Assembly (NCBI GenBank): GCA_043820025.1
Contig: JBDRED010000015.1
Coordinates: 1-19,790, forward strand
Source of the DNA: JBDRED01 sp043820025 [NCBI: Elusimicrobiota bacterium]
Lineage (GTDB): Bacteria; RUG730; JBDRED01
Direction: 5' to 3'
DNA length: 19,790 nucleotides
Below the pieces are notes generated by a model that did no database searches, was not told the origin of the DNA, and worked only from the letters and a program-made list of their open reading frames with translations. This document shows, in pieces, positions 2 to 17,121 of this stretch (its first letter is position 1; each line of letters begins with the position of its first letter). The translations under genes and the position numbers were made by a program.

Positions 2-3000
2 ATTGAAGGAATAGAATCAAGTTTCTGGGAATGGTCTGAGATAAGTGATCCCAGGATAGCAGAATTAAAAAACCAATTAGATTCGTTATTAAAAGGTTAT
101 ATGGAAAATAAGGTTCCTGCTCTCCGTCTCCGCGGCGGCGCTGGTGAGTTTGGCGAGCTAGAAAGTGAAACCGGTAGTGAATCAAGTGAAGAGGAAGCAG
201 CAGTCTCGCTAATAGAATTAATTGATGATACTTTGGAAAGATTAAATACGTACGCTATTGTTGATGAAAGAGGAGTAATTGCCGGAACAAGACCCGAAAA
301 AGCTCAAAGCGTTACTTATTATAATTATGATGGTACTGAAAAACAAAAGGTTGAAGGAGAAGAGCTTGAGAATATAAAAGAGATAGATTTAAAGATCATA
401 GTAGCCCAAAAAATAAATTATGATAGTTTTCCCCAAAACAATATTATTTACAAAGTAGAGGAATATCCAAATGGAGCCAAAGTATTATATAGACATAATT
501 TAAGTGGACAATGGTTTATAGCTGAACCCATAATTGAAATAGACGGGAAGGTAATTAATCTGCATGGCGTAAACGTGCAAAAAAATGGGGTAGCTAATGC
601 ATATATTGGAGAGAGCGTAAATGAGATAGTTGTAGGCCTTCATGAAACTGCAGTAAAACGAAGAAGGAATGTTGAACAAGCTAAAATAGACGCAATACAA
701 AAAATACGAATTGTGAAAGCAAGGAATGATAGTAAGCGTAAAAAGGTTATTTTAACAGGAGAAAAACTTATATCTTATGGATTTAACGAAGCTGATGGGA
801 AGTTTAGCGCTGAAGGGACAGAAGTAGAGTATAAAGACGGTATACAGGTAGGTGATTATGGGAGGATGAAGCCGAGCATAAAAGGAAATACATTGTATTT
901 TACTCCAATGCTTGGAGATAGTGATTATGAAATGGTTGAAATTAATTCGGATGGACGGCCTGTTACAGCAGTAAGACGCGGCAGGGCAGTTACGCCATTT
1001 ATTAAGTCATACACAGGAACAGATTGGGCTGAAGACGTGCCAAAGGCTAAAATAACCATTCAAAGTATAACAGACGATAACAGATATATTAATAAAGATA
1101 CACAAGCAGAGATTACAATAATTAAGCCAACAGCGATACGAGGCAGGCTGGAGTTGTATTCAATTAAGGGTGAGCAGTATGTAGATGAATATGAGCTGGA
1201 TGGTATTACGCTCAGAACAAGAATAAGGACAAAAGAACTGGATCTAACCAGCGGTATTGTTTCTGCTTACAGCTCACAATTTCAAAATGATTTTTTTATA
1301 CAAATTATTGTTGGGAAAAGGATAATAAGTAAGTTGCCCGGTATTGGAGAGAGAATTAAATCAGAAAAAATAGATAGTAATCTGAGAGCGCTTGCAGAAC
1401 AATTAATAGCATTTAAAGTATTTAGTGTAGACGGTGTAGCTCCGGATGTGATGAGACGGATATTAAGTGATCCGGACCATACAAGGGTTAAGGATGGTAT
1501 AATAGAAAGGACTATTAGTGCGCAAAGAACAGGTATTCTTGGCCGTTTATTGGATAAGGTTAGCCCAAAGACCGCAACTTACGTATTTGATTTAAAAAAA
1601 TTAGAATTTGTAGAAAAGCATGCGCTAAAAAGAGGAGAGGAATTAGAATATGTAGAATTAGGATCAGGAAGTTCAGGAGCTGAGGAGGAAATGGAGAGTG
1701 TGTCAAGTGACTCAGACTATGAAACGGAAAGTGATGATGGTGAGGGAAGTAGCGGTGAGATAATAGGCAGTGAAGAGCAGTTAGTAACAGATGATAGTGA
1801 AGAGGAAATAAGGGCGGCTTCTCAGGAAGGAACAGAAGAAGGGTCAGGTATAGAGGATGGAGGGGAAGTTCCCATTGTTGAGATGACAACAGGGCAGGTC
1901 AATGTTGGGCGTAAGACCAGGACACATTGGGGCCGGCTTATTGGGAATATGCTCCTTTCAGCTTTGTATTATTTCTTTGTTGCTGTGCCTAGGAGCTTTG
2001 TGTGGCCGCATAAGCAGTATAGAAGCTCTAATTATCTTTTCAAATATTGGATACCATATTTTTCTGCGATTCTTTTGTCTCTCATTATGGCTGTCGTATT
2101 CGCAGTGACAGGAATAACGCTTGCAGTTACAGTCAGCCCATACTCCTTGTTTATGCTTGCTGCAATATTGATCATACCTGTTACTGCCGCGTTCTTTCCT
2201 ATGTGGTCAGGCAGGCGGCTTGCAGGAGATGTTCTACGCAAGAGAACCAGGCCGTATATAAAAGAAATACTTCAGCGTGAAAAAGAGGATAATGAAGAGA
2301 GGCTGAATAATAATAAAAAATTTAAATTTACACGGCTTAAGGTTTTGCGCGTTATGGCAATGTCCAGGCGTTTTACAACAGGCTTTTTCAAGGGATTATT
2401 CGTAGACCACAAGACATCAAAGAGTAAGGTTATAACAATATTTCGTATGATTGCGTACGGAGCGCTTTTTATTAGTTTTATAGCTGCTGTTATAGTGGCA
2501 AGCGTTAGCCCGTATCCGTTTGCGTCTGTGATGGTGTTTGGCATAGGCCTAAGTATTGCCGGCTTTATGGGGATAATCGCGTTTCGCAATGCGTGGAAGT
2601 GGGCAATGGACACAAATGATAACTGGAAGAAGGTAGAATCTGACATGAAAAAAGATATTCTTGATGTGGTTGAGCCGAGTCAAGAAGAAAAAACAAAAGC
2701 GCTTAACAGATTAGATAAAATCAGAGCCGGGGCAGCTGTTCAGGCTGAAGAAGAGGCGGACGCGGATCAGGAGTTAATGGATGCAGAAACACTGCTACGG
2801 CAGCAAGAACCGGCAAGGCGCGGTTTCAGAAATACACTTAGAGCTGATATATTAAAAAGTATTCAAAACAGGGAAGTTTTAGGAATAGGAGATAACAATA
2901 AAGGTATTGTCCACCTGCTGGCTCTTAAGTGGGTTATAGAGCACGAAATAATTCAACCACAAACAGAAAAAAATCAGAGGCCCGGAAGAATTGCCGGAGG

Positions 3001-6000
3001 CGCGGCAGAAGTTTTGTCTTCGGCTTCAGCGACAAGCTCAAGGACGTCTTCAGAGTCGAGTTTAGAGACAACTTCAGAGACAAGCTCAGAAGAAAGCTCA
3101 GAAGTAAGCTCAGAAGTAAGGCCGGAAAGTGTAGTGATAGAGATGCCTGCTGAGCAAGAGGCAGGATTATTCGAAGGCACTGTTGTGGCAATTGTGGATA
3201 ATAAAGTAGTAATAACTCCTCGAGGCGCTGTAACAGACGCTGATTTACAGAAAGCGCGAAGAGAACTTTTTAGTATAGAATTACGAGAGCATATTAGAGA
3301 TCAGCTTACCGGAGAGGGAGCTCATTCTGTGACATTAAATGTGGCAAATGAGATTAATATTGATGCATTCCTTAGGGCAGTAAAGGATTATTATCCGAAG
3401 GTAACTAGATTAATGAATGCGGATGACATTACTAAGAATGATGATAGAACGATCCGGATTCCGATGAGGTTTGGACAGAGAAGAGAAGACGTTGAATTAG
3501 CTCCAGAGGAGATTGTGCAAGTAGGGCAACCGGTGAGCGAAGGCCCGTTACAAGGACTTGTAGTGGGAAGAGAAATTATGGCAGCCGGAGGGTCGCAAGA
3601 ATTAGTAGAAGAAGACGTTGAAAGAGAAGAGGGTCCTCGTGTCATTCCTGGGGAAGCGGGAATTCAGGTTAAGACTATAGTTAATAATATCGGAACCAAT
3701 GCAGAGTTTGTTGAGCAGGCAAGAAAAGATATTGAGAGTGAATTGTATGTAAGTAATGACAAACTCGTCGAGATACTTACAGATGTTTATAATGATCGGG
3801 TAGTGCGCCTGCGCGATATGTCATTTAATTATGCAAAAAAGGTTGAACAGGTTTTAAATAATAAATTTAAGGAGCTGGGATTAACAGGGCTCATGGTTCA
3901 GACTATCCAGTATGGAGCCGCTGGAAGCAGAGGCATGGTGGTTGTATATAACAGCCTTGATCCGGGAGAGAATACTCCTGCAGAAAGAATGAAGAGTAAG
4001 GTCGCGAGGTCTCAGCGCGCGTTTGCCGCAGGCAAGGTGTTTAGCCTTAAAGGAATATGGGATGTAGCAAAACACTGGAGGTCAAATTACAGGATATGGT
4101 TTACGGAAAATGCAACAGGCGAAGCTGTAGACGATTTTGTAAACAGGTGGCGGTTTAGAAGATTCTGGAAAACGGATTCACTGCCAAAGAAAATAGGTAT
4201 TGGCCTTGGCGGCCTGGCATGGGGAGTAATTCTCTTTGTTCCGTTTATTATTTATAGAATGATAAAGAGCCTTGGCCTGCCTGTAGAGATGATTGGCGAA
4301 TGGGCAGTAAAGATCGGCGAGGCGGTTGGTATTTTAGAGCGGTCGCATGGAGTTAAGGATATCAGGCTGGACGCCGCGGCTCCATTGCCGTTATGGCAGA
4401 GGACTATAAATGCGTTTGTTGTTCTGCCTGTTTTAAGAGGAATGATTACTAGGGGCATTAGAGGCGCGTTTAGGTTAAAACCTGAAACAACATTAAGCGA
4501 AGCGCAGATAGTGGATAGAAGAATAGAAGGTATGTATGAGAATCTTAATTTTGATCCGGGATTTGTAATAGATATAAATGTTCTCAATCCGGCTTATAGG
4601 GATGAAATATTGAGGTCAGATTATAACAGTGAGTTATTAAAACAAATTCTTGGAGAAGATAGGATAAATGAATTAAAATTACTAAATACTGTTGCTGATC
4701 CTGAGACAGAAGAAGCAGTAATAAGAGAAGAGCAATTAAATAGTACTCTGCGCAACGAAGCTCTGCGCAAGGAAGTATTTAGAATATACTACAAATCCCT
4801 TATTGCAACAATTATCCAAAATGACGCATTGCAATACTCAATTGATATGAGGAAAGGATTATTTAACGCATCAATACCTATCCTTTTAGGGTTCCGCGGC
4901 GGGCTTAAACAACACTGGTTCAGGGCATTCTTAAATGACCAAAATGTAAATTTAACATACGGCCGTTTTATAATTTCAAAAAGCGAAAAAGAAACACACG
5001 GCAATCTTTTGGTCCGTACATTATTAGGCCTTGAGAAAGAAGGATCAAATCTGGTTACTATGAGCCTTGCGTTTGTTAAGGTAATGCTTGCGCTATTAAT
5101 GAAGCTCTCATATTACCTGTCAGGAACATTTATCGGTATTTTCGGTATTAAGATATTTCATAAATTTATATTTAATCCTGTAAAGATATTTGTAACAGAG
5201 CTTCTGGTGCATAGCAGTCTTGCGAGGCAGTTTATATCCTTAATAGGCGGCTCAATATTTTTAATAACCGAATTTTTAGCGCTTGTTGTTACATTTAAAT
5301 GGGTCTTATTTATTTTTAGCGAACACAGAAAGACTTATGTTCGAAAATTCAAGCAAGGGCTCAAGCTTTATAAGGCTGTTTCAAATGAAGATTACCCTGA
5401 TAAAGCGCAGAGGCAAAAAAAAGAGCGCGCGCAGGCAAGAGATATTATTAAAAATGCGTTTAGGCTGTACTCAAAGATAGCGTTTGCAATATTCTTAGTG
5501 ATATTTATTTTCTCGCTGGTTAATGTGATTGCTCCGGGCGCTCTGTCGCAGTTTACATTTATCGGCTATATTATGCAGGGGCTGGGTTATGTCTCAGTGA
5601 CTACCTGGGTTAGTACTGTTATAAGCCTGTGGGCGCCGACTAATGTAGTGTCGCCGGATTTATTGGATCTTACGCCCCAGCCTGATGACCCGAATCAGGA
5701 AACGCAATGGGGGGAGTTTTATACAGGCCTGTATGATAACGCGGCAGACGGTAATATAGCGGGTGTTACGCAGACGCTTGCATACAGCTCAGTTATGGAC
5801 TGGATAGGTTTATCGCCCGGCGATCTTATGGGATTATTTATGAATTCATTTGGAATCCTTCCCGGCCCTGACGAAGATATTATTGAAATAACAGGCGATT
5901 TCGACGGCGATGGCAAGGAAGACACTATTTACGCGTATGATAGGAATGGCGACGGCGAACCTGATCTTATTGACCCTGACGGAGATCCAAATGATTATAA

Positions 6001-9000
6001 TAATTGGTATGCGCAGAAGATCGAGTGGGGCAATGGCAATATGGATGTATATTTTTATAACAAAGACGATAATAAGCAGATAGAGTACATAGTTAAATAC
6101 GACTCGCATAATGCGGATGATTCCACAGATTCTATTGACGACGATTTTCTTGTAAGCATTGAATTTAAATCCGGCGAACATGAAGGCGAGACATGGACGT
6201 ACGAGCAGAGCGCGCAGGAAAATATTATTATTGTAAGAGACGCTGACGGTAATATTATCGACGAATATTTGTATGGAGGCAGTGCTTTTGACCAGGAAAC
6301 ATTTATGTTTGATAATCAAGATATTGAAGCGCACCTGGAGTTTGATCCTGCAACAGGCGAGCTGGAGAGCATGACAACATATACGTACAACGGCCCGGAT
6401 CCTGAGAATCCTATAGTAACGTCTGAATTTGTTAGAAATGACGACGGAAGCGCTGAATGGATATTTTATGATGTTGATGGGAATGTTACGCGCCGCATCG
6501 AGTTTGAGGATGGATTTTCATGGCAGGCTGATGGTACGGTATCAGGCGAAGGAGTTGTATACGACGCAGATGGTAATGAGGTTGGAACAGCTTCTATGGA
6601 TTCAAGCGATCTCATTGAAAACTCGACATCCAGGTTAATCATTAGAGAGGATGGACAAGAAGACTTTATACTGGAGTATTATAATGAGTTTGGAGAGAAT
6701 GTGGGTTCGAGCGAGGCTGCGCCTACTGTTACAATAGGCGATACTACATACCGCGACGCGGACCTGGACGGCGTTCCGGACGAAGACCCGTATGGCAATA
6801 AAATAATAATACGCAAGGACTATGCTGACGGGACTTATGAGATTTATGATTATGGAGACACATTGTATGACGATGATCCTGAGGTTGAGTATGTCAGGCA
6901 GTATAATGAAGACGGCGCGCTAATTAGAATTGACGATTATGATGATACGGGAACATACATTGAGGAGCAGATATATTATGACGGCAAAGGCACAGCCGGC
7001 GGAAATATTTTAGTTCATAACCGGTTTAATAGTAATGGGACATTGACAGATCAGAATATTTTCGCAGATGTGGATAATGACGGAGACCTTGACCTGTATA
7101 TGGAATACCACATAAACGGCGGAGTAAAATACGATAACAATCCTATAACAATTATTCATAGCGATCCGGGCGATCCGTCAAATGATATGACGATTGAATG
7201 GGACCCTGATACAGGAGCAGGAACCGTATATAATACTACAGGCCAGATAACAGGAAACGCCTCAAAAGATGCAGATGGAAATATTATAATAACACTGCCC
7301 GGCGATGATAGAGTAATTACAATATCACAAAACGATAACGGCACATTAGATGAGATCTTGACTGAAGACCTTGCGGGCAACGACCTTACGCATGAATATT
7401 ACGCAAACGGAAGACTTCTTCTTAAACAGGAATATATTTACGATGCTGACATGAACCTTTTAGTTATGAACGAATATGATAGTAATGGCGACCTGATTGA
7501 ACAGCATGTTAACTGGGACGTTGACGGCGAGTACATAGAAGTTATTTATTATATGACATATGACGATGATGGCGATGGCGTAATAGACAGGGCTGTTACT
7601 ATTATTAAATACAAAGACGGTAGTACTGAAACTATATCCTGGGATGTTGACGAGAGCGGAAATGTTACAGGCAGCGGTGTTATAGAAGATGCCGCGACTG
7701 TAGAGTGGACAGATACCGGCGGGCCTGCAGGCGCTGACACAGGTATTATTATAACCTATAATGATGGCAGTAAGCTCGAGATATGGCAGGATGAGGATGG
7801 TAACCTGGTCCAGCTTGACAGGTATAGCGCTGACGGCGATTTAACGACTGAGTTTTATGAGGACGGCAAGCTGACAGGCACCTGGGAGTATGATTATGAG
7901 TCAGGCAGGCTTATTACTATTACAAAGTATGATGCTGACGGAGATATTACAGTAGTTGAGACATACCAGTTTGACGGGAATCAGGATGTATTGATACAGG
8001 AGGATTTCTACGACGCGGATGGAGAAAAGATTATTTCGCAGAATTATTATAACCTTGACGGGTCATTGCGGGAATCTTGGAATTACACATATGACGGCGG
8101 CGGGAATCTTGAAACAATAGAAAAATTCGATGATACGGGAACGCGTTTCCAAAAAGAATATTATGACAACGGCGAGCTTGTTATGCGTAATAATTATGAC
8201 ACAGACGGCGTAAGCATAGTAACTCGGGAAACATTTATAGATCTTGATAACGACGGGCAATTAGACACTCTTATTTACACCACAGCAACGAATGAGACAC
8301 AGGTTCAATACTATGACGGGACAATAGAATATATTAACTGGACAACAGGCGAGATACTGGACGAGGACCGTAATGTAATAGGCGGTGTTGTAGTTAATGG
8401 CGATGCGTCATTATATAACCAGGACTATGACCCTGACGCGCCCGCAGGGTCAACGGAAACGATCCTGTTTTATAACGATGGCACGGTTCGCAGAATAATA
8501 TCTGACAGCGAAGGAATTCCTGTTATTACTGTAGAGGAGGATATTACAGAACACTTTACAATCGCTATTCAGTCAGGCCCGCCTACCGCAAGGGCTACAA
8601 CATATTATATTGACCTTGACCGCGACGGAAATCCTGATAAGGATAAATTTGGGAATGACATGATATATAAGAGAGAGGTTTATAATACTACAGGCGCGGA
8701 GCCGGTTCTTATTAATATTACTGTTTATCATTATGACAATATCGCAGGCGCAAATCCCGCAAAAATAAGCGAGGATATATATACCTCGCAGAGTGATTTT
8801 GATAATGGAATAATTGAACAGACAAAATTTTACAGCGTTGACACAGGCGCGTTTACAGGGTATTGGGAGTATGATTATGATAATAACAGGATAAATATTT
8901 ATAACGATACTTATAAACTTATCGGCTGGGATACGTATGCGTCTAATGATTTTGATAATCTGATCGCAAGCAGAAGATATGAATATGATGTTGGGAACAA

Positions 9001-12000
9001 TATGATCCTTATTTATGAAAAATACTTTTATGATATTGACGGCGATGGAAAGCTTGATACGGTTACTTATGTAACAAACAATAATACGGATATTGACGGA
9101 GACGGCGAGATAGATACAACAGTAACATTTATCGAATATGGCGACGGCTCAAAGGAAACAATAGTCTGGGATACGGATAATGACGGTATTATTTACAATG
9201 AAGCCGGAGAGCCGGTTGGAAGCGCGGTTCTGCATGGAGATGAGACGATTGATCCGGAGACAGGATTACCTGTTAAAACATATCTAACCATGGTTTATAA
9301 CGACTACACAGAGATAGATATAACGCAGGATATGTATGGAATTGTTGAGGCAAGGGATATTACGACATTAGAGACAGTTACGCGCACAGTAGGCCCAAAT
9401 ACATATATTGTCAGAGACCTTGACGGCGACGGCAATCCTGATAAGATCAATCCTCTCGGCCCTGATGATCCGTCGAATTGGGTAATAATTAAGCAAACGC
9501 ATATATCGGGCCGTGTAACAATATATAACTATGATAACCTTGTTGCTGATGAGCCTGTCCTTGCGCGCGAGGATATTTACAACAGCGAGGCAGACTATAC
9601 TAACGGCGATCTTGCAGAACAAATTTACTATGAGGCAGGCGCGCTCAAGGAAACCTGGACATATAACCGCGTATCAGGCGAATACTATATTGAGATAGAG
9701 GATTCCACCGGGAATCTAACTGAAACAAGGTCATACTATGACGAAGATTTTCAAAATGTTAAAAGCATAAGACAGTATGAGTATGATGCGTTTAATGAAA
9801 GATTTCTTGTTTCCGAAGATATTTATGATACTGACGGAGACCTATTAATGTCATTTGACCGCGACGGCCAAGGAACAACAGGTATAACCACATTTTACGA
9901 GGCTGACGGCCAGACCGTTAAAGAAACAATAGAGTGGAGTAATATTGATAAGGATAGCACAACAGGCGCGGGCATAGCCTATAACAGCGCGCACGATGCG
10001 ATAGGCATTGCAACGCTTGAAGCGGACACTACATACAGCACGCCCGGAACAAAGCTGACAATTGATTATTCGGATGTTGGCAGAGCTGATCTTGTGATTT
10101 ACCAAAACGAGCAGGGAGATATAATGTATCAGGAAGGCGGCGAGGTTGGCATGGGCGCAGGCGCAGGCGTTACATTAAAAGGAATTCAAGAGGGGGCGAT
10201 TACTACTAAAGAAACAACCGGGGAACAGCAAGAAACAACTGAGAGGGAAGAAAAGAAAATACAGTTAAAACCCGAGGTAGAACGTAAGAGAGAAGAAAAA
10301 AAGAAGAGGCAGGAGCTTTTATTTGAGAGGATAGTTAATGGAGTGGGCGCATTATTTGGGGCTGAAGAAGAGGAGCGGGCTGAAAGAGATGCCCTCGGGT
10401 TAAAGTATATAAGACTGGCTGAGTTCCAAGGCGGTAATCCGGCAGTGCAGGCAACAAGCGGCGGATTACAAAATATAGCCGAAGCAATTGCAAACTTTGG
10501 GCTGGAAGATACAAATAGCAGGCTAACAGAAATTATGTCGGTGAATGGGGTAGGCCTGCAAGTTACGGATGCTGTCAGCGAATCAATGCAGGACACAACA
10601 GATGCGCCAAATGTCAGTCTGATTAATGAAGGCGCCATGGTATCTATTAATCTTACAATGCTTAGAGCGCTGGATGCTATTAGAAATATTTCTGAAACTA
10701 TTTTCGAGAGTTTTACTGCGCAGCTTCTTGCAGGAGTAAATCCTTTTACAGCAGATGCAGAGCTTGCAGGAGCATTTAATAAAATGTTACATTATTCGAG
10801 AAGCGAAACAAGGTTTGATATTGCAACTCTTCATAGCAATGCTGTTGCAGTTGCGCGCTGGGCGTCAATACAGGATACAACAAAGCAGTATACTGATAGA
10901 GATATAAAACAAGCTTTTGGCATAACAGAAAACGCTCTTCCTGCGGAACATATTATTTTATTAAATACTTTGACGCATAGTGTTTATGAGGAACTTGCGC
11001 AAAGAGGTATTTTGGACAAAGGCAAATGGATAGGAGAAGGTATAAGAGTAAAGTTTGTGCGAGATTCGCAATTCGATTATACGGATGAGAGAGCAGTTAC
11101 TCAGCTTAAGCAGATTAACCGCGCGAGCGTTTTGGCAGAAACAATGAACTCACAGGCCGAGGTTGTTTACGGCGAATTAGCGTTAATTGCATTATTAGAA
11201 AATAAATCCAAGGAACTTAACGAGCAAAATATATCAGGCATTGGTAATCCTTTAAGCATAGATACTGCGGGTAATATTGTTACAAGCGCTGGCGTTCTGG
11301 ATTATTGGATAAGAGAAGAGATAATGAGAATGACAGGGAAAATGAGGTTCCAAGATGTAAAGGAGAGAGATATTATAGATGTTACAAACAGCGCATTCAC
11401 ATTAATGGTTAAGGCTAATCCATATTTAAGCGCAGAGATGAGAAATAATTTAATTAAGCCTTTGCCTGCAGACAGCGCGGCAAGAAAGAGAGAGATAGAA
11501 AGAAGAACAGTAATGTTAAAAGAATATATTGAAGGAATGGAAGACGCTCAAGCGCGATCAAATTTAAAGGATGTATTACAAACCGCGGGCATTACTGATA
11601 CTGCTGACCCGAAACTTTTTGTTGTAGTTTTAAGCGCAGTATCATTCGTTTATAACAACGAAGAAGGAAGGCAGGGTATTATGTACTGCCAAGCTATAAG
11701 TAGCGAGCATGCAGATAAAATGAAGGATATCTCACAGATGCCGTTTGGATTAAAAATAGAACTTCCAAAAGAAACCGAGGAAGCGGTTATGCATTTACAG
11801 GGCGATGAAGCCTCTTATGGAACAAGGCAGGTAACATCTGAAGGTATTGAAGTATGGTTGACACAGAAAAGGCATGAGATCACAATTACTCCGCAAATTC
11901 CTCAAGAGCCTGAGAATGTTCAGATTAAAGAAGGCCCTGTAAGAGAAAGGGTTGAGTTGTCTCGTCCGGAAGAAATTCAAAACGCAGTTCTAAGCACAAT

Positions 12001-12172
12001 GTTAAATATAGCAGCTCAGCTTGAGGGCGCAATTGCAAAAGGAGTGGGAGAGATTTTAGGCGCAGCTTCGCTGACATCTGTAATACCTGGAGCTAGAATT
12101 GATAAATTAAAATATGAAGCATTAGACAGTAAGCGCGCAGACATGTACAAACGCATCGAATCCGCCGCATAA
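2..12172 (+). CDS. Giant multi-domain membrane/surface protein, 5'-partial (at least 4,056 residues)
   Basis: The frame is open from the first complete codon at position 2 to TAA at 12170-12172. The first in-window ATG is at 101, but the 33 codons before it also read as ordinary protein, so the true start is probably upstream. Residues below are numbered from that ATG. Layout: 1-520 unrecognised soluble region; 521-590 S/E/D linker; about 613-710 and 777-837 hydrophobic clusters with a duplicated SPY hairpin; 967-1011 S/E/T linker; 1011-1360 soluble; about 1367-1390, 1651-1746 and 1789-1850 further membrane segments; 1933-3340 Asp/Gly/Tyr-rich repeats with DxDxDG loops; about 3373-3410 K/E-rich, coiled-coil-like; 3410-4023 mostly helical-looking, unrecognised. 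I recognise no catalytic motif. Giant proteins of this kind are known from Omnitrophota. A role as an envelope-anchored adhesin or contact protein is inference. The stop lies inside a repeat of the adjacent transposon. Confidence 0.9.
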   Translation: MEGIESSFWEWSEISDPRIAELKNQLDSLLKGYMENKVPALRLRGGAGEFGELESETGSESSEEEAAVSLIELIDDTLERLNTYAIVDERGVIAGTRPEKAQSVTYYNYDGTEKQKVEGEELENIKEIDLKIIVAQKINYDSFPQNNIIYKVEEYPNGAKVLYRHNLSGQWFIAEPIIEIDGKVINLHGVNVQKNGVANAYIGESVNEIVVGLHETAVKRRRNVEQAKIDAIQKIRIVKARNDSKRKKVILTGEKLISYGFNEADGKFSAEGTEVEYKDGIQVGDYGRMKPSIKGNTLYFTPMLGDSDYEMVEINSDGRPVTAVRRGRAVTPFIKSYTGTDWAEDVPKAKITIQSITDDNRYINKDTQAEITIIKPTAIRGRLELYSIKGEQYVDEYELDGITLRTRIRTKELDLTSGIVSAYSSQFQNDFFIQIIVGKRIISKLPGIGERIKSEKIDSNLRALAEQLIAFKVFSVDGVAPDVMRRILSDPDHTRVKDGIIERTISAQRTGILGRLLDKVSPKTATYVFDLKKLEFVEKHALKRGEELEYVELGSGSSGAEEEMESVSSDSDYETESDDGEGSSGEIIGSEEQLVTDDSEEEIRAASQEGTEEGSGIEDGGEVPIVEMTTGQVNVGRKTRTHWGRLIGNMLLSALYYFFVAVPRSFVWPHKQYRSSNYLFKYWIPYFSAILLSLIMAVVFAVTGITLAVTVSPYSLFMLAAILIIPVTAAFFPMWSGRRLAGDVLRKRTRPYIKEILQREKEDNEERLNNNKKFKFTRLKVLRVMAMSRRFTTGFFKGLFVDHKTSKSKVITIFRMIAYGALFISFIAAVIVASVSPYPFASVMVFGIGLSIAGFMGIIAFRNAWKWAMDTNDNWKKVESDMKKDILDVVEPSQEEKTKALNRLDKIRAGAAVQAEEEADADQELMDAETLLRQQEPARRGFRNTLRADILKSIQNREVLGIGDNNKGIVHLLALKWVIEHEIIQPQTEKNQRPGRIAGGAAEVLSSASATSSRTSSESSLETTSETSSEESSEVSSEVRPESVVIEMPAEQEAGLFEGTVVAIVDNKVVITPRGAVTDADLQKARRELFSIELREHIRDQLTGEGAHSVTLNVANEINIDAFLRAVKDYYPKVTRLMNADDITKNDDRTIRIPMRFGQRREDVELAPEEIVQVGQPVSEGPLQGLVVGREIMAAGGSQELVEEDVEREEGPRVIPGEAGIQVKTIVNNIGTNAEFVEQARKDIESELYVSNDKLVEILTDVYNDRVVRLRDMSFNYAKKVEQVLNNKFKELGLTGLMVQTIQYGAAGSRGMVVVYNSLDPGENTPAERMKSKVARSQRAFAAGKVFSLKGIWDVAKHWRSNYRIWFTENATGEAVDDFVNRWRFRRFWKTDSLPKKIGIGLGGLAWGVILFVPFIIYRMIKSLGLPVEMIGEWAVKIGEAVGILERSHGVKDIRLDAAAPLPLWQRTINAFVVLPVLRGMITRGIRGAFRLKPETTLSEAQIVDRRIEGMYENLNFDPGFVIDINVLNPAYRDEILRSDYNSELLKQILGEDRINELKLLNTVADPETEEAVIREEQLNSTLRNEALRKEVFRIYYKSLIATIIQNDALQYSIDMRKGLFNASIPILLGFRGGLKQHWFRAFLNDQNVNLTYGRFIISKSEKETHGNLLVRTLLGLEKEGSNLVTMSLAFVKVMLALLMKLSYYLSGTFIGIFGIKIFHKFIFNPVKIFVTELLVHSSLARQFISLIGGSIFLITEFLALVVTFKWVLFIFSEHRKTYVRKFKQGLKLYKAVSNEDYPDKAQRQKKERAQARDIIKNAFRLYSKIAFAIFLVIFIFSLVNVIAPGALSQFTFIGYIMQGLGYVSVTTWVSTVISLWAPTNVVSPDLLDLTPQPDDPNQETQWGEFYTGLYDNAADGNIAGVTQTLAYSSVMDWIGLSPGDLMGLFMNSFGILPGPDEDIIEITGDFDGDGKEDTIYAYDRNGDGEPDLIDPDGDPNDYNNWYAQKIEWGNGNMDVYFYNKDDNKQIEYIVKYDSHNADDSTDSIDDDFLVSIEFKSGEHEGETWTYEQSAQENIIIVRDADGNIIDEYLYGGSAFDQETFMFDNQDIEAHLEFDPATGELESMTTYTYNGPDPENPIVTSEFVRNDDGSAEWIFYDVDGNVTRRIEFEDGFSWQADGTVSGEGVVYDADGNEVGTASMDSSDLIENSTSRLIIREDGQEDFILEYYNEFGENVGSSEAAPTVTIGDTTYRDADLDGVPDEDPYGNKIIIRKDYADGTYEIYDYGDTLYDDDPEVEYVRQYNEDGALIRIDDYDDTGTYIEEQIYYDGKGTAGGNILVHNRFNSNGTLTDQNIFADVDNDGDLDLYMEYHINGGVKYDNNPITIIHSDPGDPSNDMTIEWDPDTGAGTVYNTTGQITGNASKDADGNIIITLPGDDRVITISQNDNGTLDEILTEDLAGNDLTHEYYANGRLLLKQEYIYDADMNLLVMNEYDSNGDLIEQHVNWDVDGEYIEVIYYMTYDDDGDGVIDRAVTIIKYKDGSTETISWDVDESGNVTGSGVIEDAATVEWTDTGGPAGADTGIIITYNDGSKLEIWQDEDGNLVQLDRYSADGDLTTEFYEDGKLTGTWEYDYESGRLITITKYDADGDITVVETYQFDGNQDVLIQEDFYDADGEKIISQNYYNLDGSLRESWNYTYDGGGNLETIEKFDDTGTRFQKEYYDNGELVMRNNYDTDGVSIVTRETFIDLDNDGQLDTLIYTTATNETQVQYYDGTIEYINWTTGEILDEDRNVIGGVVVNGDASLYNQDYDPDAPAGSTETILFYNDGTVRRIISDSEGIPVITVEEDITEHFTIAIQSGPPTARATTYYIDLDRDGNPDKDKFGNDMIYKREVYNTTGAEPVLINITVYHYDNIAGANPAKISEDIYTSQSDFDNGIIEQTKFYSVDTGAFTGYWEYDYDNNRINIYNDTYKLIGWDTYASNDFDNLIASRRYEYDVGNNMILIYEKYFYDIDGDGKLDTVTYVTNNNTDIDGDGEIDTTVTFIEYGDGSKETIVWDTDNDGIIYNEAGEPVGSAVLHGDETIDPETGLPVKTYLTMVYNDYTEIDITQDMYGIVEARDITTLETVTRTVGPNTYIVRDLDGDGNPDKINPLGPDDPSNWVIIKQTHISGRVTIYNYDNLVADEPVLAREDIYNSEADYTNGDLAEQIYYEAGALKETWTYNRVSGEYYIEIEDSTGNLTETRSYYDEDFQNVKSIRQYEYDAFNERFLVSEDIYDTDGDLLMSFDRDGQGTTGITTFYEADGQTVKETIEWSNIDKDSTTGAGIAYNSAHDAIGIATLEADTTYSTPGTKLTIDYSDVGRADLVIYQNEQGDIMYQEGGEVGMGAGAGVTLKGIQEGAITTKETTGEQQETTEREEKKIQLKPEVERKREEKKKRQELLFERIVNGVGALFGAEEEERAERDALGLKYIRLAEFQGGNPAVQATSGGLQNIAEAIANFGLEDTNSRLTEIMSVNGVGLQVTDAVSESMQDTTDAPNVSLINEGAMVSINLTMLRALDAIRNISETIFESFTAQLLAGVNPFTADAELAGAFNKMLHYSRSETRFDIATLHSNAVAVARWASIQDTTKQYTDRDIKQAFGITENALPAEHIILLNTLTHSVYEELAQRGILDKGKWIGEGIRVKFVRDSQFDYTDERAVTQLKQINRASVLAETMNSQAEVVYGELALIALLENKSKELNEQNISGIGNPLSIDTAGNIVTSAGVLDYWIREEIMRMTGKMRFQDVKERDIIDVTNSAFTLMVKANPYLSAEMRNNLIKPLPADSAARKREIERRTVMLKEYIEGMEDAQARSNLKDVLQTAGITDTADPKLFVVVLSAVSFVYNNEEGRQGIMYCQAISSEHADKMKDISQMPFGLKIELPKETEEAVMHLQGDEASYGTRQVTSEGIEVWLTQKRHEITITPQIPQEPENVQIKEGPVRERVELSRPEEIQNAVLSTMLNIAAQLEGAIAKGVGEILGAASLTSVIPGARIDKLKYEALDSKRADMYKRIESAA
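1661..1870 (+). other. Acidic S/E/D/G low-complexity linker in the giant protein
   Basis: About 70 residues (521-590 from the ATG at 101) are almost only Ser, Glu, Asp and Gly with short runs such as AEEEMESVSSDSDYETESDD. It separates the N-terminal soluble part from the first membrane cluster. Such composition is expected of a disordered acidic spacer. No function is visible beyond that. Confidence 0.75.
1937..2610 (+). repeat. Duplicated membrane-hairpin module in the giant protein
   Basis: Two stretches look like diverged copies. The first runs around residues 630-710 and the second around 762-837 (from the ATG at 101). Each has an aromatic-rich approach, an His-Lys pair (H637, H770), a Ser/Lys-rich step, a hydrophobic helix, a V-S-P-Y turn (serines 679 and 803) and a second hydrophobic helix ending in basic or Trp-rich sequence. 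Corresponding landmarks are 124-133 residues apart. This suggests an internal duplication of a two-helix membrane unit. It was judged by eye, without an alignment score. Confidence 0.5.
2999..3133 (+). repeat. S/E/T low-complexity linker with a 12-bp tandem repeat
   Basis: This is a second disordered-looking linker (residues about 967-1011) rich in Ser, Glu and Thr. Its core at 3083-3118 consists of three tandem copies of AGCTCAGAAGTA, the first with one mismatch, giving Ser-Ser-Glu-Glu/Val units. The 12-bp period keeps the frame, so copy-number change would lengthen or shorten the linker without breaking the gene. Confidence 0.75.
5051..5650 (+). other. Main hydrophobic (transmembrane) block of the giant protein
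   Basis: Residues about 1651-1746 and 1789-1850 hold several long hydrophobic stretches, for example FIGIFGIKIF, LIGGSIFLITEFLALVV, KIAFAIFLVIFIFSLVNVI and the following Gly/Thr/Trp-rich segment. They are separated by a basic loop rich in Arg and Lys (about residues 1746-1788). This is the last membrane block before the long hydrophilic repeat region, so it probably anchors that region to one face of a membrane. The number of helices and the topology are not certain. Confidence 0.65.
5897..10120 (+). repeat. Long YD/MORN-like repeat region with DxDxDG calcium-loop motifs
   Basis: Over about 1,400 residues the protein repeats short beta-type units of the form Y-x-x-DG/NG-x-L followed by an aromatic or acidic strand. 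They resemble RHS/YD repeats and MORN_2/YwqK-type repeats. Loops of the DxDxDGxxD kind recur: DFDGDGKED (residue 1933), DADLDGVPDED (about 2217), DVDNDGDLD (about 2324), DDDGDGVID (about 2488), DLDNDGQLD (about 2713), DLDRDGNPD (about 2837), DIDGDGKLD and DIDGDGEID (about 2979 and 2997), DLDGDGNPD (about 3106). These match the Ca2+-binding loop pattern of EF-hand, dockerin and thrombospondin-3-like repeats. A larger module carrying a conserved Trp recurs at W2141, W2367, W2514, W2747, W3023 and W3279. No RHS core or toxin domain follows. Confidence 0.8.
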
Positions 12173-12195
12173 TAAGGGGTCATAATAAGGGGTCA
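12170..12195 (+). repeat. Tandem duplication of TAATAAGGGGTCA at the left end
   Basis: Two exact 13-bp copies abut with no spacer. The first supplies the TAA stop (and a second TAA) of the giant gene. The GGGGTCA portion is the complement of the TGACCCC heptamer that recurs at the right end of the element, so the duplication seems to belong to the element rather than the host gene. Confidence 0.85.
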
Positions 12196-12214
12196 GGTCT
12201 CGAAATTCGAACTT
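12189..12214 (+). repeat. Left inverted repeat of the transposase element
   Basis: It starts GGGGTCAGGTCTCG and ends TTCGAACTT. It is the exact reverse complement of 13213-13238. It contains the 11-bp near-palindrome TCGAAATTCGA (12200-12210), able to form a small hairpin of the sort recognised by HUH transposases. Confidence 0.9.
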
Positions 12215-12216
12215 TC

Positions 12217-12246
12217 TTGACAAACGATGAATAAAAGTTGTATAAA
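12217..12246 (+). promoter_or_regulatory. Sigma70-type promoter of the transposase gene
   Basis: A perfect TTGACA -35 (12217-12222) is followed after 18 bp by TATAAA (12241-12246) as -10, a 5/6 match to TATAAT. It lies just inside the left inverted repeat. The predicted transcription start, 6-7 bases after the -10, falls on or next to the ATG at 12253, so the mRNA would have essentially no leader. No Shine-Dalgarno sequence is visible before the ATG, in agreement with this. Confidence 0.65.
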
Positions 12247-12252
12247 ACAAAC

Positions 12253-13209
12253 ATGACAAGACCATTAAGAATAGAATATAACGGAGCATATTATCATATA
12301 ATTGTACGAGGGCATCGTAAAGAATCGATATTTTATACTGATATTGATCGTATAACCTTTCTAAAGAATCTCCAAGAAACAAAAGATAAATATAGTTTAG
12401 AAATATATGCATTTGTGTTGATGGATAATCATTATCATTTACTTTTAGAAACCAAAAAAGGTGAACTAAGTAAAGCGATGCATAATTTAAATACTAGTTA
12501 TGCAAACTGGTTTAAGAAAAAAAATAATCTTGTTGGGTCAATTTTTCAAGGAAGATATAAAGGGATATTGATAGAAGATGAAAAGTACATGTTAGCAGTG
12601 AGTGCATATATACATCTTAACCCTATAAGAGCAGGCATAATAAACTACGGAAACATGTATAAGTGGAGTAGTTATATGAATTATTGTAATAAAGGAAACA
12701 AAAACGAAAGATTAGTAAATACTGACTTAATATTGAGTTGTTTTAAGAATAAAAAAAGTTATAAAGAATTTATAAATGATCTCTACAAAAAAGGAATAGG
12801 TAAAGATGATATATATGGGAAAAATGCTATAGTAGGAAATGAAGAATTTAGAGATAACCTTAAGGAAAGAATAAAAGTAGATAAAAGAAAGAAAGATATT
12901 ACAGAATATAGTAATTATAAAGATATAGTAGGCATGAATAAAAAAAATATCATATCTATTATGGAGAGGTTGTATGGAGTAAAATCATGTGATATAAGGA
13001 TAAAAAAAAGAGGAAACATATATAGAAAAATATATGTATATGGATTGAGAAAATACACATCGTTAAGTATAAAAGAAATAGGAGAAGATTTAAACGAGAA
13101 ATATAAGACAATATCAAAATACTATACAAATTTTTTAAAATTAATAGAAAAAGAAAAGAAAGTAAGGAAACAAGTTAGGTTGTTTGATAAGAAAATAACA
13201 GGAGAATAA
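12253..13209 (+). CDS. REP-associated tyrosine transposase (RAYT, Y1_Tnp/HUH family)
   Basis: A 318-residue protein that should nick and join single-stranded DNA at the hairpin-bearing repeat ends by a phosphotyrosine intermediate. It begins MTRPLRIEYNGAYYHIIVRG, the typical start of this family. The HUH motif is H60-Y61-H62 in MDNHYHLLLE, and the likely catalytic tyrosine is Y119 in AYIHLNPIRAG. The C-terminal part (about 235-300) has a helix-turn-helix-like segment, SLSIKEIGEDL, reminiscent of the DnaA C-terminal DNA-binding domain often found in this family. A TTG five codons upstream (12238) is possible, but it lies upstream of the predicted -10, so ATG is preferred. Codon use is strongly A-rich (many AAA, AAT, ATA), unlike the neighbouring genes. 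The gene looks intact. Confidence 0.92.
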   Translation: MTRPLRIEYNGAYYHIIVRGHRKESIFYTDIDRITFLKNLQETKDKYSLEIYAFVLMDNHYHLLLETKKGELSKAMHNLNTSYANWFKKKNNLVGSIFQGRYKGILIEDEKYMLAVSAYIHLNPIRAGIINYGNMYKWSSYMNYCNKGNKNERLVNTDLILSCFKNKKSYKEFINDLYKKGIGKDDIYGKNAIVGNEEFRDNLKERIKVDKRKKDITEYSNYKDIVGMNKKNIISIMERLYGVKSCDIRIKKRGNIYRKIYVYGLRKYTSLSIKEIGEDLNEKYKTISKYYTNFLKLIEKEKKVRKQVRLFDKKITGE

Positions 13210-13212
13210 TAA

Positions 13213-13238
13213 AAGTTCGAATTTCGAGACCTGACCCC
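13213..13238 (+). repeat. Right inverted repeat of the transposase element
   Basis: It begins three bases after the transposase stop codon. It is a perfect 26-bp reverse complement of 12189-12214, starting AAGTTCGAATTTCGAG and ending in CTGACCCC. Confidence 0.9.
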
Positions 13239-13279
13239 AAATATGACCCGAATTTCGAGACCTGACCCCAAATATGACC
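13218..13279 (+). repeat. Two exact tandem copies of a 31-bp end unit
   Basis: Units 13218-13248 and 13249-13279 are identical, each running from CGAATTTCGAGACC through CCCCAAATATGACC. A partial further copy of the CCCCAAATA part follows at 13278-13286. The duplicated unit carries the outer part of the right inverted repeat, so the right end has two potential transposase recognition sites. Confidence 0.88.
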
Positions 13280-13327
13280 CCAAATACATGCTTGCCAAAG
13301 GCCGTTATTTTTGATTTAATACACCTT

Positions 13328-15172
13328 ATGCAAAAGACAGTGTATGTAATATTATCATTTCATGGGCATGAACCGCTTTGGGACCTGCCTGAGCAGATAC
13401 AGAAGACGTTCGACGATTATCGTATTTCACAAGCTTTTACGCCTGAAAATTATTTAAGAAAACGGCTCACGGAAACCCGCAATATTTATAGAGACCTGTT
13501 AACATTCCTTAGAAACAGCAAAATAAAAGCCACAGTAGATTTCACAAACGAACTTTTATATCAATTAAGAACAACAGTGCCAAACACATATGACGCTTTA
13601 TGCAGGGCATATAAGGAAGGGATTTTATATCCGCTGTATACAACTGCGCATCATACTCATATCACAATGTTAAACCAAAAAGAGCTTGCTGAAGAGCTGG
13701 ATATGAATAAGGACTTCTTACATAACGCCATGAAGGTTCCTAAACCAAAGTATAACGGATTTTTCTTTACGGAATGCTCTGTTGATAAGAAATATATCCC
13801 GGCTCTAAAAAAGCTCGGAATAGATTATATTATTTATCCGCATTTAAACGAACGCAAAGCAAATTTCAGCGTAAGCGATAAATCATACGATTACAAATAT
13901 AAGCCTTTTAAAGCAGAAGGAATGACAGCGCTTCCGAGGCATTTTAATGTGTCGCAGGAGATATGGCGGCCTATTACGCAAATGTACCCTGACAGGGTAA
14001 AGTATCAGGGATATCTTCTTGGGCAATACAGCGTGTTTGGCGACGAATATAATTCACACAGCACAGTTCCTTTTCCAATAAGCGAGAATCAGGCAGTATC
14101 TGAGTATGCGGTACAGCTGTCGCGAGCATTAGACGAGGCGCCGGATAAAGGCCTTATTTTATATATGCAGGATTTGGAATTAATGGATTTTGGCGATGCA
14201 GCGCTTAGTATTATGGAAAAAGCGTGGAAAAAAATAAAACGCACAAAAAAATGGAATATAAAATTTGTAACGCCGGATGAGTATTTAGACGCTGTTAAAT
14301 CAAACAACAAATTGCCGGCTGTTAGGTGCAGTAAGATAAGCTGGGCGCCTGAATTGCGGCTTGTGTCGCGTTTTGACGGGCATTATCCGCCGCTTACAGC
14401 TACTGATGTAATGGGCAGGGATATTGTGCCGCAAATATTTAAGAAGAGGCCGTTTATTTTTTGGGAGATGGGAGCGTATCATACAAATTTTTTCAAATGG
14501 CTGATTTCGGCGTTTAATTATAAAACTACTGTAGACGTTGACGCGTGTTCAATAGCCGATGAAGGATATCAAATATATAGATTTCCATATTACCAGCGCC
14601 TGCCTATGCACATCAGGCTCATGTCACGCGCGTGCAACTGGGGCTGGAGGCCTGACGAGGGGAGAAGCAAGAGGCATTATCTCCACGGGTACTGTATTGC
14701 AGATGCGTTATTATTGATACATAAATTTTACCCCAAAAAACTAAAAGTAAAACACGCGCCGCTTAATTTGAAATTAATAGAAGGTATGAAAAAATATTTA
14801 GAGATAGTTGTTGATATGCGTATAGCGTATCTTAAGTTTGGACTGGAGCGGCAGAAGGATGAACGCGGATTTGATCCGGCATCAGCGCTTAGAGAGCTGG
14901 ACTATGCAGAAGGGTTTAAAAAACAATCTATTAACGGGCTTAAAAGAATAGTGCATATATATAAAGGCGAAAAAAATAATTCTAATATGTGGAAAAATTT
15001 GTTAATAGAGGCAAGAGAGAGTTCCAGAAACGCGTTTATTGCGCTTGACCACATACAGCGCGCATGGGGTAATGGCGGAGATACCGACTTTCTTGTTATG
15101 TCTATGTATAAATACCTCTATGATATCGTCCCGCCGAAAATTGTTACTACCCTGGACGAAATAGAAAAATAA
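13328..15172 (+). CDS. Glycoside hydrolase family 57 protein (alpha-glucan hydrolase/transferase)
   Basis: A 614-residue protein likely to cleave or transfer alpha-1,4 or alpha-1,6 glucan chains in the cytoplasm; no signal peptide is seen. The N-terminus matches GH57 region I (FHGHEP, residues 11-16). The probable nucleophile is E149 in FFFTECSVDKKYIPALKKLGI, and the probable acid/base is D282 in YMQDLELMDFG, in the place of the usual DGE-x-FG of region IV. The Cys after E149 and the Leu after D282 differ from the best-known members, so amylase, branching-enzyme or glucanotransferase activity cannot be separated. An in-frame ATG at 13274 would add 18 residues, but it lies inside the transposon repeat; ATG 13328 starts the domain cleanly. 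No good Shine-Dalgarno is seen. First gene of a three-gene glucan operon; the next gene starts 69 bp after its stop. Confidence 0.83.
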   Translation: MQKTVYVILSFHGHEPLWDLPEQIQKTFDDYRISQAFTPENYLRKRLTETRNIYRDLLTFLRNSKIKATVDFTNELLYQLRTTVPNTYDALCRAYKEGILYPLYTTAHHTHITMLNQKELAEELDMNKDFLHNAMKVPKPKYNGFFFTECSVDKKYIPALKKLGIDYIIYPHLNERKANFSVSDKSYDYKYKPFKAEGMTALPRHFNVSQEIWRPITQMYPDRVKYQGYLLGQYSVFGDEYNSHSTVPFPISENQAVSEYAVQLSRALDEAPDKGLILYMQDLELMDFGDAALSIMEKAWKKIKRTKKWNIKFVTPDEYLDAVKSNNKLPAVRCSKISWAPELRLVSRFDGHYPPLTATDVMGRDIVPQIFKKRPFIFWEMGAYHTNFFKWLISAFNYKTTVDVDACSIADEGYQIYRFPYYQRLPMHIRLMSRACNWGWRPDEGRSKRHYLHGYCIADALLLIHKFYPKKLKVKHAPLNLKLIEGMKKYLEIVVDMRIAYLKFGLERQKDERGFDPASALRELDYAEGFKKQSINGLKRIVHIYKGEKNNSNMWKNLLIEARESSRNAFIALDHIQRAWGNGGDTDFLVMSMYKYLYDIVPPKIVTTLDEIEK

Positions 15173-17062: not shown

Positions 17063-17121
17063 AATAGAAAATCCGGAATGACAGATAAATGCAGTATTAA
17101 ATTTTACTATCTGGAGCGGTT

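What the first reader, a model, noticed from the sequence alone, without database searches (positions are those of the whole stretch)
2..12172. Giant open frame over 12 kb that also runs off the upstream edge
More than 4,000 codons without a stop, alternating soluble, low-complexity, membrane and repeat regions, with no recognised enzyme domain. The frame is open from the window edge, so the ATG at 101 is only the first in-window Met. Giant proteins occur in Omnitrophota, including lineages thought to attack other cells. A protein with multiple membrane blocks plus a calcium-loop repeat array could be an attachment or contact system, but that role is inference.
Basis: partly seen in the sequence, partly recalled or inferred. 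Interest (0 to 1): 0.72.

Follow-up and report, generated by a model that had tools for sequence, protein, structure and literature searches.

The report
Orphan giant membrane protein with repeats
A gene of at least 12,000 bases encodes one huge bacterial membrane protein, with no relative found in the genomes searched, that carries a long repeat arm with calcium-type loops; it is probably a cell-surface contact or scaffold protein of the kind already reported from uncultured Omnitrophota.

Summary
One frame is open from the window edge to a stop at 12170-12172: 4056 codons, against at most 230 in 200 simulated sequences. No Pfam or NCBIfam family reaches its cut-off. The protein has S/E-rich linkers, three membrane blocks (nine likely helices), five modules of about 270-310 residues carrying ten distinct DxDxDGxxD loops (none elsewhere), and a C-terminal region without family match. 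The repeats look like very divergent MORN_2/YD-type beta-hairpins (sub-threshold hits). No homologue of the non-repeat parts was found: N-part 0 of 384 genomes of the Omnitrophota phylum, repeat profile 0 of 285. TreZ and MalQ next door are nearest to Omnitrophota but only about 50% identical, so a deep Omnitrophota-like lineage is plausible, not proven. A Y1 transposase element starts at the gene's stop codon. Best reading: a polytopic inner-membrane giant with about 2,200 residues outside the cytoplasm, working as an envelope-anchored contact or scaffold arm; an orphan member of the described class of poorly conserved Omnitrophota-type giant proteins. The role is inferred.

The parts
2..12172 (+). 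Giant open reading frame, 4056 codons plus stop, 5' end open
101..103 (+). First in-window ATG; possible real start (SD-like AAAAGG just upstream) or internal Met
2..1666 (+). N-terminal soluble region (aa 1-555), with a first S/E-rich stretch at about aa 45-68; no family match
1658..1897 (+). Acidic S/E/G-rich linker (aa 553-632)
   Evidence: sequence
1940..2593 (+). Membrane block 1 (aa 647-864): helices 689-709, 715-735, 813-833, 840-860, and a marginal 647-667
2594..4189 (+). Middle soluble region (aa 865-1396) with S/E-rich linker at about aa 998-1050; predicted cytoplasmic
4190..4285 (+). Membrane block 2 (one helix, aa 1397-1428)
4286..5041 (+). Soluble loop aa 1429-1680, predicted extracytoplasmic
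   Evidence: 7 K+R and 7 D+E at the flanks, so not decisive
5042..5563 (+). Membrane block 3 (aa 1681-1854): helices 1684-1704, 1711-1731, 1752-1772, 1826-1846; a marginal 1854-1874 follows
5879..10201 (+). Repeat arm, aa 1960-3400: five modules of about 270-310 aa, ten distinct DxDxDGxxD loops, 12-13 residue periodicity, strongly acidic
10136..10378 (+). Charged low-complexity linker (aa 3379-3459)
   Evidence: sequence
10379..12169 (+). C-terminal region (aa 3460-4056), no family match; mostly helical in a single-sequence model that is unreliable (pLDDT 36)
12170..12195 (+). Two direct 13-bp copies TAATAAGGGGTCA (12170-12182, 12183-12195); the first holds the giant's stop codon; left edge of the transposase element
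   Evidence: read
12189..13279 (+). Y1 (RAYT-like) transposase gene (12238-13209) between perfect 27-nt inverted repeats (12189-12215 / 13212-13238), with a 31-bp tandem copy at 13249-13279

Best explanation
A single giant inner-membrane protein with no close relative in the genomes searched. Nine likely helices in three blocks anchor it. By the charge rule the N-terminal and middle regions lie in the cytoplasm, and everything after about aa 1847 (some 2,200 residues) lies outside it. The outer part is a row of five related modules built from 12-13 residue MORN/YD-like beta-hairpins punctuated by calcium-type loops, ending in a further domain. I propose that calcium stiffens this acidic arm so that it reaches through the periplasm and presents the C-terminal domain to the outer envelope or another cell, as a contact or scaffold protein. 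Shown: the frame, the module repeats, the loops and their confinement, the hydrophobic segments. Inferred: topology, calcium binding, the reach of the arm, and the contact role.
For: Open frame beyond chance. Of 55 segment pairs compared, exactly the ten pairs among the five repeat segments exceed z 4 (z 5.2-21.2; segment borders chosen by eye, 30 shuffles each). DxDxDGxxD-like pattern: 11 hits, 10 distinct, all inside aa 1955-3420; relaxed D.[DN]G 29 inside, 0 outside. Lag 266 z 5.7 (a lag picked beforehand as the top of 695) and lag 13 z 3.8 among 27 lags. Sub-threshold Pfam hits to DUF2963 (1.2e-4) and MORN_2 (4.1e-4) in one of ten slices; 3 of 198 genomes of another phylum matched aa 2534-2742, and the two of these loci that I read are, by eye, plain MORN-type repeat proteins. 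Module model: beta-rich, pLDDT 59; its best rows are single-layer or YD-shell beta sheets (OspA, teneurin, Tse5), Z at most 6.4. Long inside loops carry K+R over D+E 14:4, 16:5 and 13:9; 150-residue slices of the arm carry net charge -12 to -33.
Against: Without the true N-terminus the orientation and any signal sequence are unknown. The flanks of aa 1-646, placed inside, are slightly acidic (6 K+R, 8 D+E), and the 1419-1683 loop is neutral. Counting the marginal helix 647-667 puts the N-terminus outside; counting 1854-1874 would put the arm inside. Of 11 segments over 1.25 I left out 647-667 (marginal) and 3863-3883 (holds charged residues). Structural matches are below the Z of 8 that the tool calls meaningful, on a low-confidence model, and Foldseek's top rows are mostly beta propellers at TM near 0.2. 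No outer-membrane anchor, secretion system or adhesin domain reached a cut-off. The neighbours are glucan and trehalose enzymes, not attachment genes.
Confidence: 0.4

Rival explanations
1. A structural or glycan-handling envelope protein that serves the cell itself (periplasmic scaffold linked to the GH57-TreZ-MalQ cluster downstream) and not contact with other cells.
For: The giant and the GH57-like, TreZ and MalQ genes are co-oriented, and outside the transposase element the gap before the GH57-like gene is only about 50 bases. In one Omnitrophota genome (G015) a TreY-TreZ-MalQ run (TreY named by eye) is followed about 7 kb further on by a different 6417-codon stop-to-stop frame.
Against: No carbohydrate-binding or catalytic family reached a cut-off in the giant; adjacency is one locus in each genome, and our N-part has no match in G015.
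Confidence: 0.25
2. An RHS/YD-type delivery protein: the beta repeats are a degenerate YD shell and the C-terminal 600 residues a delivered domain.
For: YD-like hairpins; teneurin, Tse5, RhsA and other Rhs structures among rows with Z 4.1-5.5; sub-threshold Pfam hits RHS_repeat (0.065) and Tox-HNH-EHHH (0.096, in the first repeat slice, not the C-part). RHS and TSP3 are named together in the legend for large proteins of a sister lineage (PMC12057145, section 13).
Against: RHS_repeat and the toxin model are far below their cut-offs; the C-part has no toxin family match; nine likely membrane helices upstream are not usual for Rhs proteins (recalled).
Confidence: 0.1
3. The frame is made as, or processed into, several proteins: separate starts or cleavage at the linkers (for example at RLRGGAGE, RIAGGAAE, MAAGGSQE).
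For: Domains are separated by S/E-rich or acidic stretches, three of which hold a GG-A/S motif; [quoted passage not shown]
Against: 16 GG sites exist in the protein, so the motif is not rare; internal starts were looked for only in the first 150 codons.
Confidence: 0.15
4. Assembly or gene-fusion artefact joining unrelated genes.
For: Lower GC3 in about aa 1-600 than in most later parts.
Against: No frame break over 4056 codons; coding pattern in all blocks; the shift coincides with a linker; low GC3 recurs at about aa 1500-1600 and 3550-3700.
Confidence: 0.04

Closest known systems
Giant ORF proteins of Omnitrophota (Seymour et al. 2023, PMC10066038; section 12 read whole, passages of others seen)
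   Same: Very large, few annotated domains, multiple membrane helices with large predicted external parts (as stated for class Omnitrophia), poor conservation (as stated for Velamenicoccia).
   Different: In-window length 12.2 kb is under their 20-kb limit (5' end open); no discoidin, laminin_G_3 or dockerin match; host lineage not proven.
Large protein of Ca. Menyafoubacter and related genomes (PMC12057145, section 13 read)
   Same: About 6000 aa, RHS and calcium-type (TSP3) elements named in its legend, from a sister lineage of Omnitrophota/Elusimicrobia.
   Different: That one has a signal peptide, no membrane helix, CASH and polysaccharide lyase domains; ours has membrane blocks and no enzyme domain.
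MORN_2 repeat proteins (Pfam PF07661)
   Same: Tyr/Gly hairpin repeats, strongest at lags 12-14 and 25 in aa 2600-2770.
   Different: Below the Pfam cut-off; calcium-type loops interleaved and arranged in 270-310 residue modules.
Giant calcium-binding adhesins such as SiiE (PMC5466336, search listing and start of abstract only)
   Same: Very long, repetitive, calcium-type sites, contact role proposed here.
   Different: No Ig-like domain at cut-off, no type I secretion gene in the window, polytopic membrane blocks instead.

Membership tests
Omnitrophota-type giant ORF proteins | Encoded by an Omnitrophota genome | tested here: inconclusive
   TreZ groups with 9 of 12 Omnitrophota-phylum rows at 90/96, unstarred; MalQ nearest by path to Omnitrophota but starred pair with an Elusimicrobia row; GH57-like best relative elsewhere; no own genome held
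Omnitrophota-type giant ORF proteins | ORF longer than 20 kb (limit used in PMC10066038) | tested here: inconclusive
   12.2 kb in window, 5' end open
Omnitrophota-type giant ORF proteins | Few annotated domains | tested here: met
   No match at cut-off in Pfam or NCBIfam; PHROGs best E 0.0037, unknown function
Omnitrophota-type giant ORF proteins | Poorly conserved between genomes | tested here: met
   N-part 0 of 384 and 0 of 47; repeat profile 0 of 285 genomes of the phylum; TreZ found in 30 of 285 shows that the search finds conserved proteins
Omnitrophota-type giant ORF proteins | Multiple transmembrane helices with large external domains | tested here: inconclusive
   Hydrophobicity and charge rule only; no dedicated predictor available
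MORN_2 repeat proteins | Pfam PF07661 at its gathering score | tested here: not met
   20.7 bits against 29.6 in the best slice
RHS/YD polymorphic toxins | RHS_repeat PF05593 at its gathering score | tested here: not met
   14.1 bits against 22 in the best slice
RHS/YD polymorphic toxins | Closed YD beta shell | tested here: inconclusive
   Model pLDDT 59; Rhs/teneurin rows with Z below 6
FG-GAP / dockerin / TSP3 calcium-repeat proteins | Family match at cut-off | tested here: not met
   FG-GAP 11.6 bits against 22.1; FG-GAP_3 12.3 against 26.9; no dockerin or TSP3 row listed
SiiE/RTX type giant adhesins | Type I secretion partner genes nearby | tested here: inconclusive
   None among the window's other five genes, one of them cut by the edge; the genome beyond the window is not available

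The most novel reading that the evidence does not exclude
A new protein architecture: a polytopic membrane anchor with cytoplasmic regions joined in one chain to an envelope-reaching arm of five calcium-loop modules made of MORN/YD-like hairpins, i.e. a one-polypeptide link between cytoplasm and outer surface that could couple outside contact to an inside response.
Probability: 0.2. Interest if true: 0.6.

Novelty: new member of a known kind. Interest (0 to 1): 0.4.

Why it matters
Giant, unconserved genes are a recurring and unexplained feature of Omnitrophota and their neighbours. This one is small enough to be cut into testable modules: five homologous repeats of 270-310 residues with calcium-type loops give a concrete target for asking whether such giants are calcium-stiffened surface arms.

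Tried and rejected
Homologue searches that led nowhere: giant against viral contigs (no pattern match); its C-part against genome contigs (28 pattern matches, none a relative); the GH57-like protein against viral contigs and plasmids (none); DNA of 4901-7900 against plasmids; repeats, C-part and N-part as protein against plasmids and repeats against phages: no match. N-part: 0 of 21, 0 of 384, 0 of 1 and 0 of 47 genomes (these sets overlap). C-part joined with the GH57-like protein: 8 of 384, every match in the GH57-like half (query 645-1034 of 1261). Repeat profile: 0 of 285. aa 1-2999 in the second phylum: 3 of 198, all in 2534-2742 (two of the three loci read). C-part there: 1 of 139 at E 0.005, on reading an antisense frame of ordinary genes by eye, rejected.

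Structure: the C-part folded alone gave pLDDT 36 and was not searched further. The module model (pLDDT 59) gave Z at most 6.4; WD propellers and MORN-repeat entries stand high in the Foldseek lists with TM near 0.2, so no fold is claimed. Alignments A2 and A3 were unusable (overlapping or unrelated rows), and the place of the third module in A1/A5 is unsure. No Rfam family in the window. PDB sequence searches: best E 0.083. Other internal comparisons: of 66 pairs, membrane sub-blocks aa 640-790 and 791-905 (z 4.1) and C-part halves (z 5.1) exceed z 3.5, too weak to use. Promoter- and terminator-like scans of 12000-13500: 10 and 2, against 7.6 and 0.5 in shuffles, both terminator-like sites on the minus strand; DNA folding of the element's edges: z -0.3 and -2.3. 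Not used as evidence.

Full report
Observation. Frame +2 is open from the window's second base to a stop at 12170-12172, 4056 codons. The other five frames of the same stretch hold 128 to 456 stops, and 200 sequences simulated from its base-to-base transitions had no open run over 230 codons. G+C by codon position keeps a coding pattern in all seven blocks. GC3 is lower over about aa 1-600 (0.22-0.30) and rises at the linker; similar dips occur near aa 1500-1600 and 3550-3700, so I do not read the shift as a join of two assemblies. The ATG at 101 is preceded by AAAAGG at a usable distance; the 33 codons before it are open too. Whether the gene starts at 101 or upstream cannot be told from the window.

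Anatomy. aa 1-555 soluble; S/E/G-rich linkers near aa 45-68, 553-632 and 998-1050; membrane block 1 at aa 647-864; a soluble middle part; one helix at 1397-1428; a 250-residue loop; membrane block 3 at 1681-1854; the repeat arm at 1960-3400; a charged linker; a C-part at 3460-4056. One search found 7 hydrophobic stretches over KD 1.6; one search found 16 segments over 1.0, 11 of them over 1.25. I count 9 helices, leaving out the marginal 647-667 and the charge-containing 3863-3883. With these nine, K+R:D+E at the flanks of the long loops is 14:4, 16:5 and 13:9 for those placed inside, 7:7 and 3:5 for those placed outside, but 6:8 for aa 1-646, also placed inside (the last outside loop was cut at 3862 by the dropped segment). 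This puts aa 1-688 and 861-1397 inside and everything after about 1847 outside. Counting one more marginal helix at either end would change it, so the topology is a proposal.

Repeat arm. Eleven segments were compared in all 55 pairs; the ten pairs among the five repeat segments, and no others, exceeded z 4 (5.2 to 21.2). Identity of the four other modules to the reference one is 26-38%. The pattern [DN]x[DN]x[DN]Gxx[DNE] hits 11 places (10 distinct), all in aa 1955-3420, none elsewhere. A 12-13 residue period shows: z 3.8 at lag 13 over the arm, among 27 lags; z 3.1-4.2 at lags 12-14 and 4.1 at lag 25 in aa 2600-2770, among 32 lags; some lags are as strongly negative, such as 30. In ten Pfam slices nothing reached its cut-off; one slice gave DUF2963 at 1.2e-4 (21.9 bits against 22.6) and MORN_2 at 4.1e-4. 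Three of 198 genomes of the phylum that holds G001 matched aa 2534-2742; the two loci I read, L080 and L081, are by eye ordinary MORN-type repeat proteins. An AlphaFold2 model of one module, with the five modules as its alignment, is beta-rich with mean pLDDT 59. Its best re-aligned structures are OspA single-layer sheets, teneurins and Rhs proteins, Z at most 6.4, under the level that the tool calls meaningful. I take this as agreement with hairpin repeats and nothing more.

Relatives. No genome is held for the window. The N-part found nothing in 21 genomes reached through loci, 384 of G002's phylum, the single genome of G001's order and 47 of G015's order (sets overlap). The C-part, joined with the GH57-like protein, matched 8 of 384, always in the GH57 half. 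The module profile matched 0 of 285. A draw of the same size gave TreZ in 30 of 285 genomes, so the search finds conserved proteins; it would not find one diverged beyond BLAST reach, nor a genome outside the draw. C-part in the second phylum: 1 of 139, spurious. Phage and plasmid collections: no match.

Whose genome. The TreZ gene (TIGR02402, 711.8 bits against 538.8) is about 50% identical to the best Omnitrophota-phylum TreZ over most of its length (54-56% over shorter stretches) and 37-45% to the 30 listed of 903 plasmid records. In a tree of 18 rows (the 12 of those matches that became loci, 5 others, and the window) it sits with 9 of the 12 at 90/96, unstarred, on a long branch. MalQ, 47% at best, is nearest by path to Omnitrophota rows; its smallest starred set (97/87) pairs it with a long-branch Elusimicrobia row (the 48 other rows come from loci that shared an exact peptide pattern with the query, so closer kin may be missing). 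The GH57-like protein is 58% identical over nearly its whole length to one in G001 (L001/L057), 1 of 247 genomes of that phylum. A deep Omnitrophota-like lineage is my reading, at perhaps 0.65.

Surroundings. Immediately after the giant lies a Y1 transposase gene (Pfam Y1_Tnp 54.6 bits against 23; NCBIfam REP-associated transposase 74 against 80, so RAYT-like but under that cut-off) between perfect 27-nt inverted repeats. Two direct copies of TAATAAGGGGTCA lie at 12170-12182 and 12183-12195 (read), and the giant's stop codon is in the first, so the element's edge coincides with the gene's present end. Beyond the element about 50 bases precede the likely start of the GH57-like gene, and no further piece of the giant is visible there. 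The giant and the GH57-TreZ-MalQ genes are co-oriented. In G015 (L040, L078, L079) a TreY-TreZ-MalQ run is followed about 7 kb further on by a stop-to-stop frame of 6417 codons with dockerin-like stretches by eye and no hydrophobic segment over the threshold; our N-part has no match in that genome.

What it most likely does. The anatomy points to a membrane-anchored protein with a long acidic, perhaps calcium-stiffened arm outside the cytoplasm. A contact, adhesion or scaffold role is the reading I commit to, at 0.4; a role in the cell's own envelope is the main rival. Steps shown: frame, modules, loops, hydrophobic segments. Steps inferred: topology, calcium binding, reach, partner.

Comparison with what is known. 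PMC10066038 (section 12 read whole, passages elsewhere) reports that ORFs over 20 kb are found in many Omnitrophota genomes, that those of Velamenicoccia are mostly poorly conserved with few annotated domains, that most of those in class Omnitrophia have several membrane helices with large external parts, and that adhesion is suspected but not shown. PMC12057145 (section 13 and passages) describes a protein of about 6000 aa, with RHS and TSP3 named in its legend, in a sister lineage. PMC11573180 and PMC8542988 were seen in passages only. The present protein agrees with that known kind in the features tested (few domains, poor conservation); lineage, the 20-kb limit and topology stay undecided. 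I found no description of this architecture in the listings of searches of the held library, which holds no preprints.

Verdict. Real, unusual and orphan, but most likely a member of a described class; function not shown. Interest 0.4.

Noticed in passing
12170-13290: Y1 (RAYT-like) transposase with a sub-threshold DnaA-C-like tail (25.5 bits against 31.5), perfect 27-nt inverted repeats and a 31-bp tandem copy; AT-rich (GC3 0.20) against its surroundings; its left edge holds the giant's stop codon.
   Followed up: partly
13274-15172: GH57-like protein (Pfam GH57 34 bits against 21.2) without an NCBIfam match; best relative 58% in an Elusimicrobia-labelled genome (L001) beside other GH57-like genes by eye; further relatives 35-43% in Dehalococcoidia, Wallbacteria and Bacillota bins. 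The listed ATG lies in the transposase flank; the true start is probably M19.
   Followed up: partly
15242-18939: TreZ followed by MalQ; the same order, preceded by TreY by eye, occurs in an Omnitrophota genome (L040).
   Followed up: yes
L078 from 172, continuing into L079: A 6417-codon stop-to-stop frame in an Omnitrophota genome (G015) with a signal-like N-terminus by eye, repeated units and YD-like stretches; our N-part has no match there.
   Followed up: partly
19072-19788: Start of a protein with a signal-like N-terminus and VGIGT-type stretches, weakly like phage tail fibres (PHROG 9942, 2e-4); runs off the window.
   Followed up: no
122-148: GC-rich stretch in an AT-rich context encoding LRLRGGAGE, which by recall resembles the end of ubiquitin; single copy in the window. 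Probably chance.
   Followed up: partly
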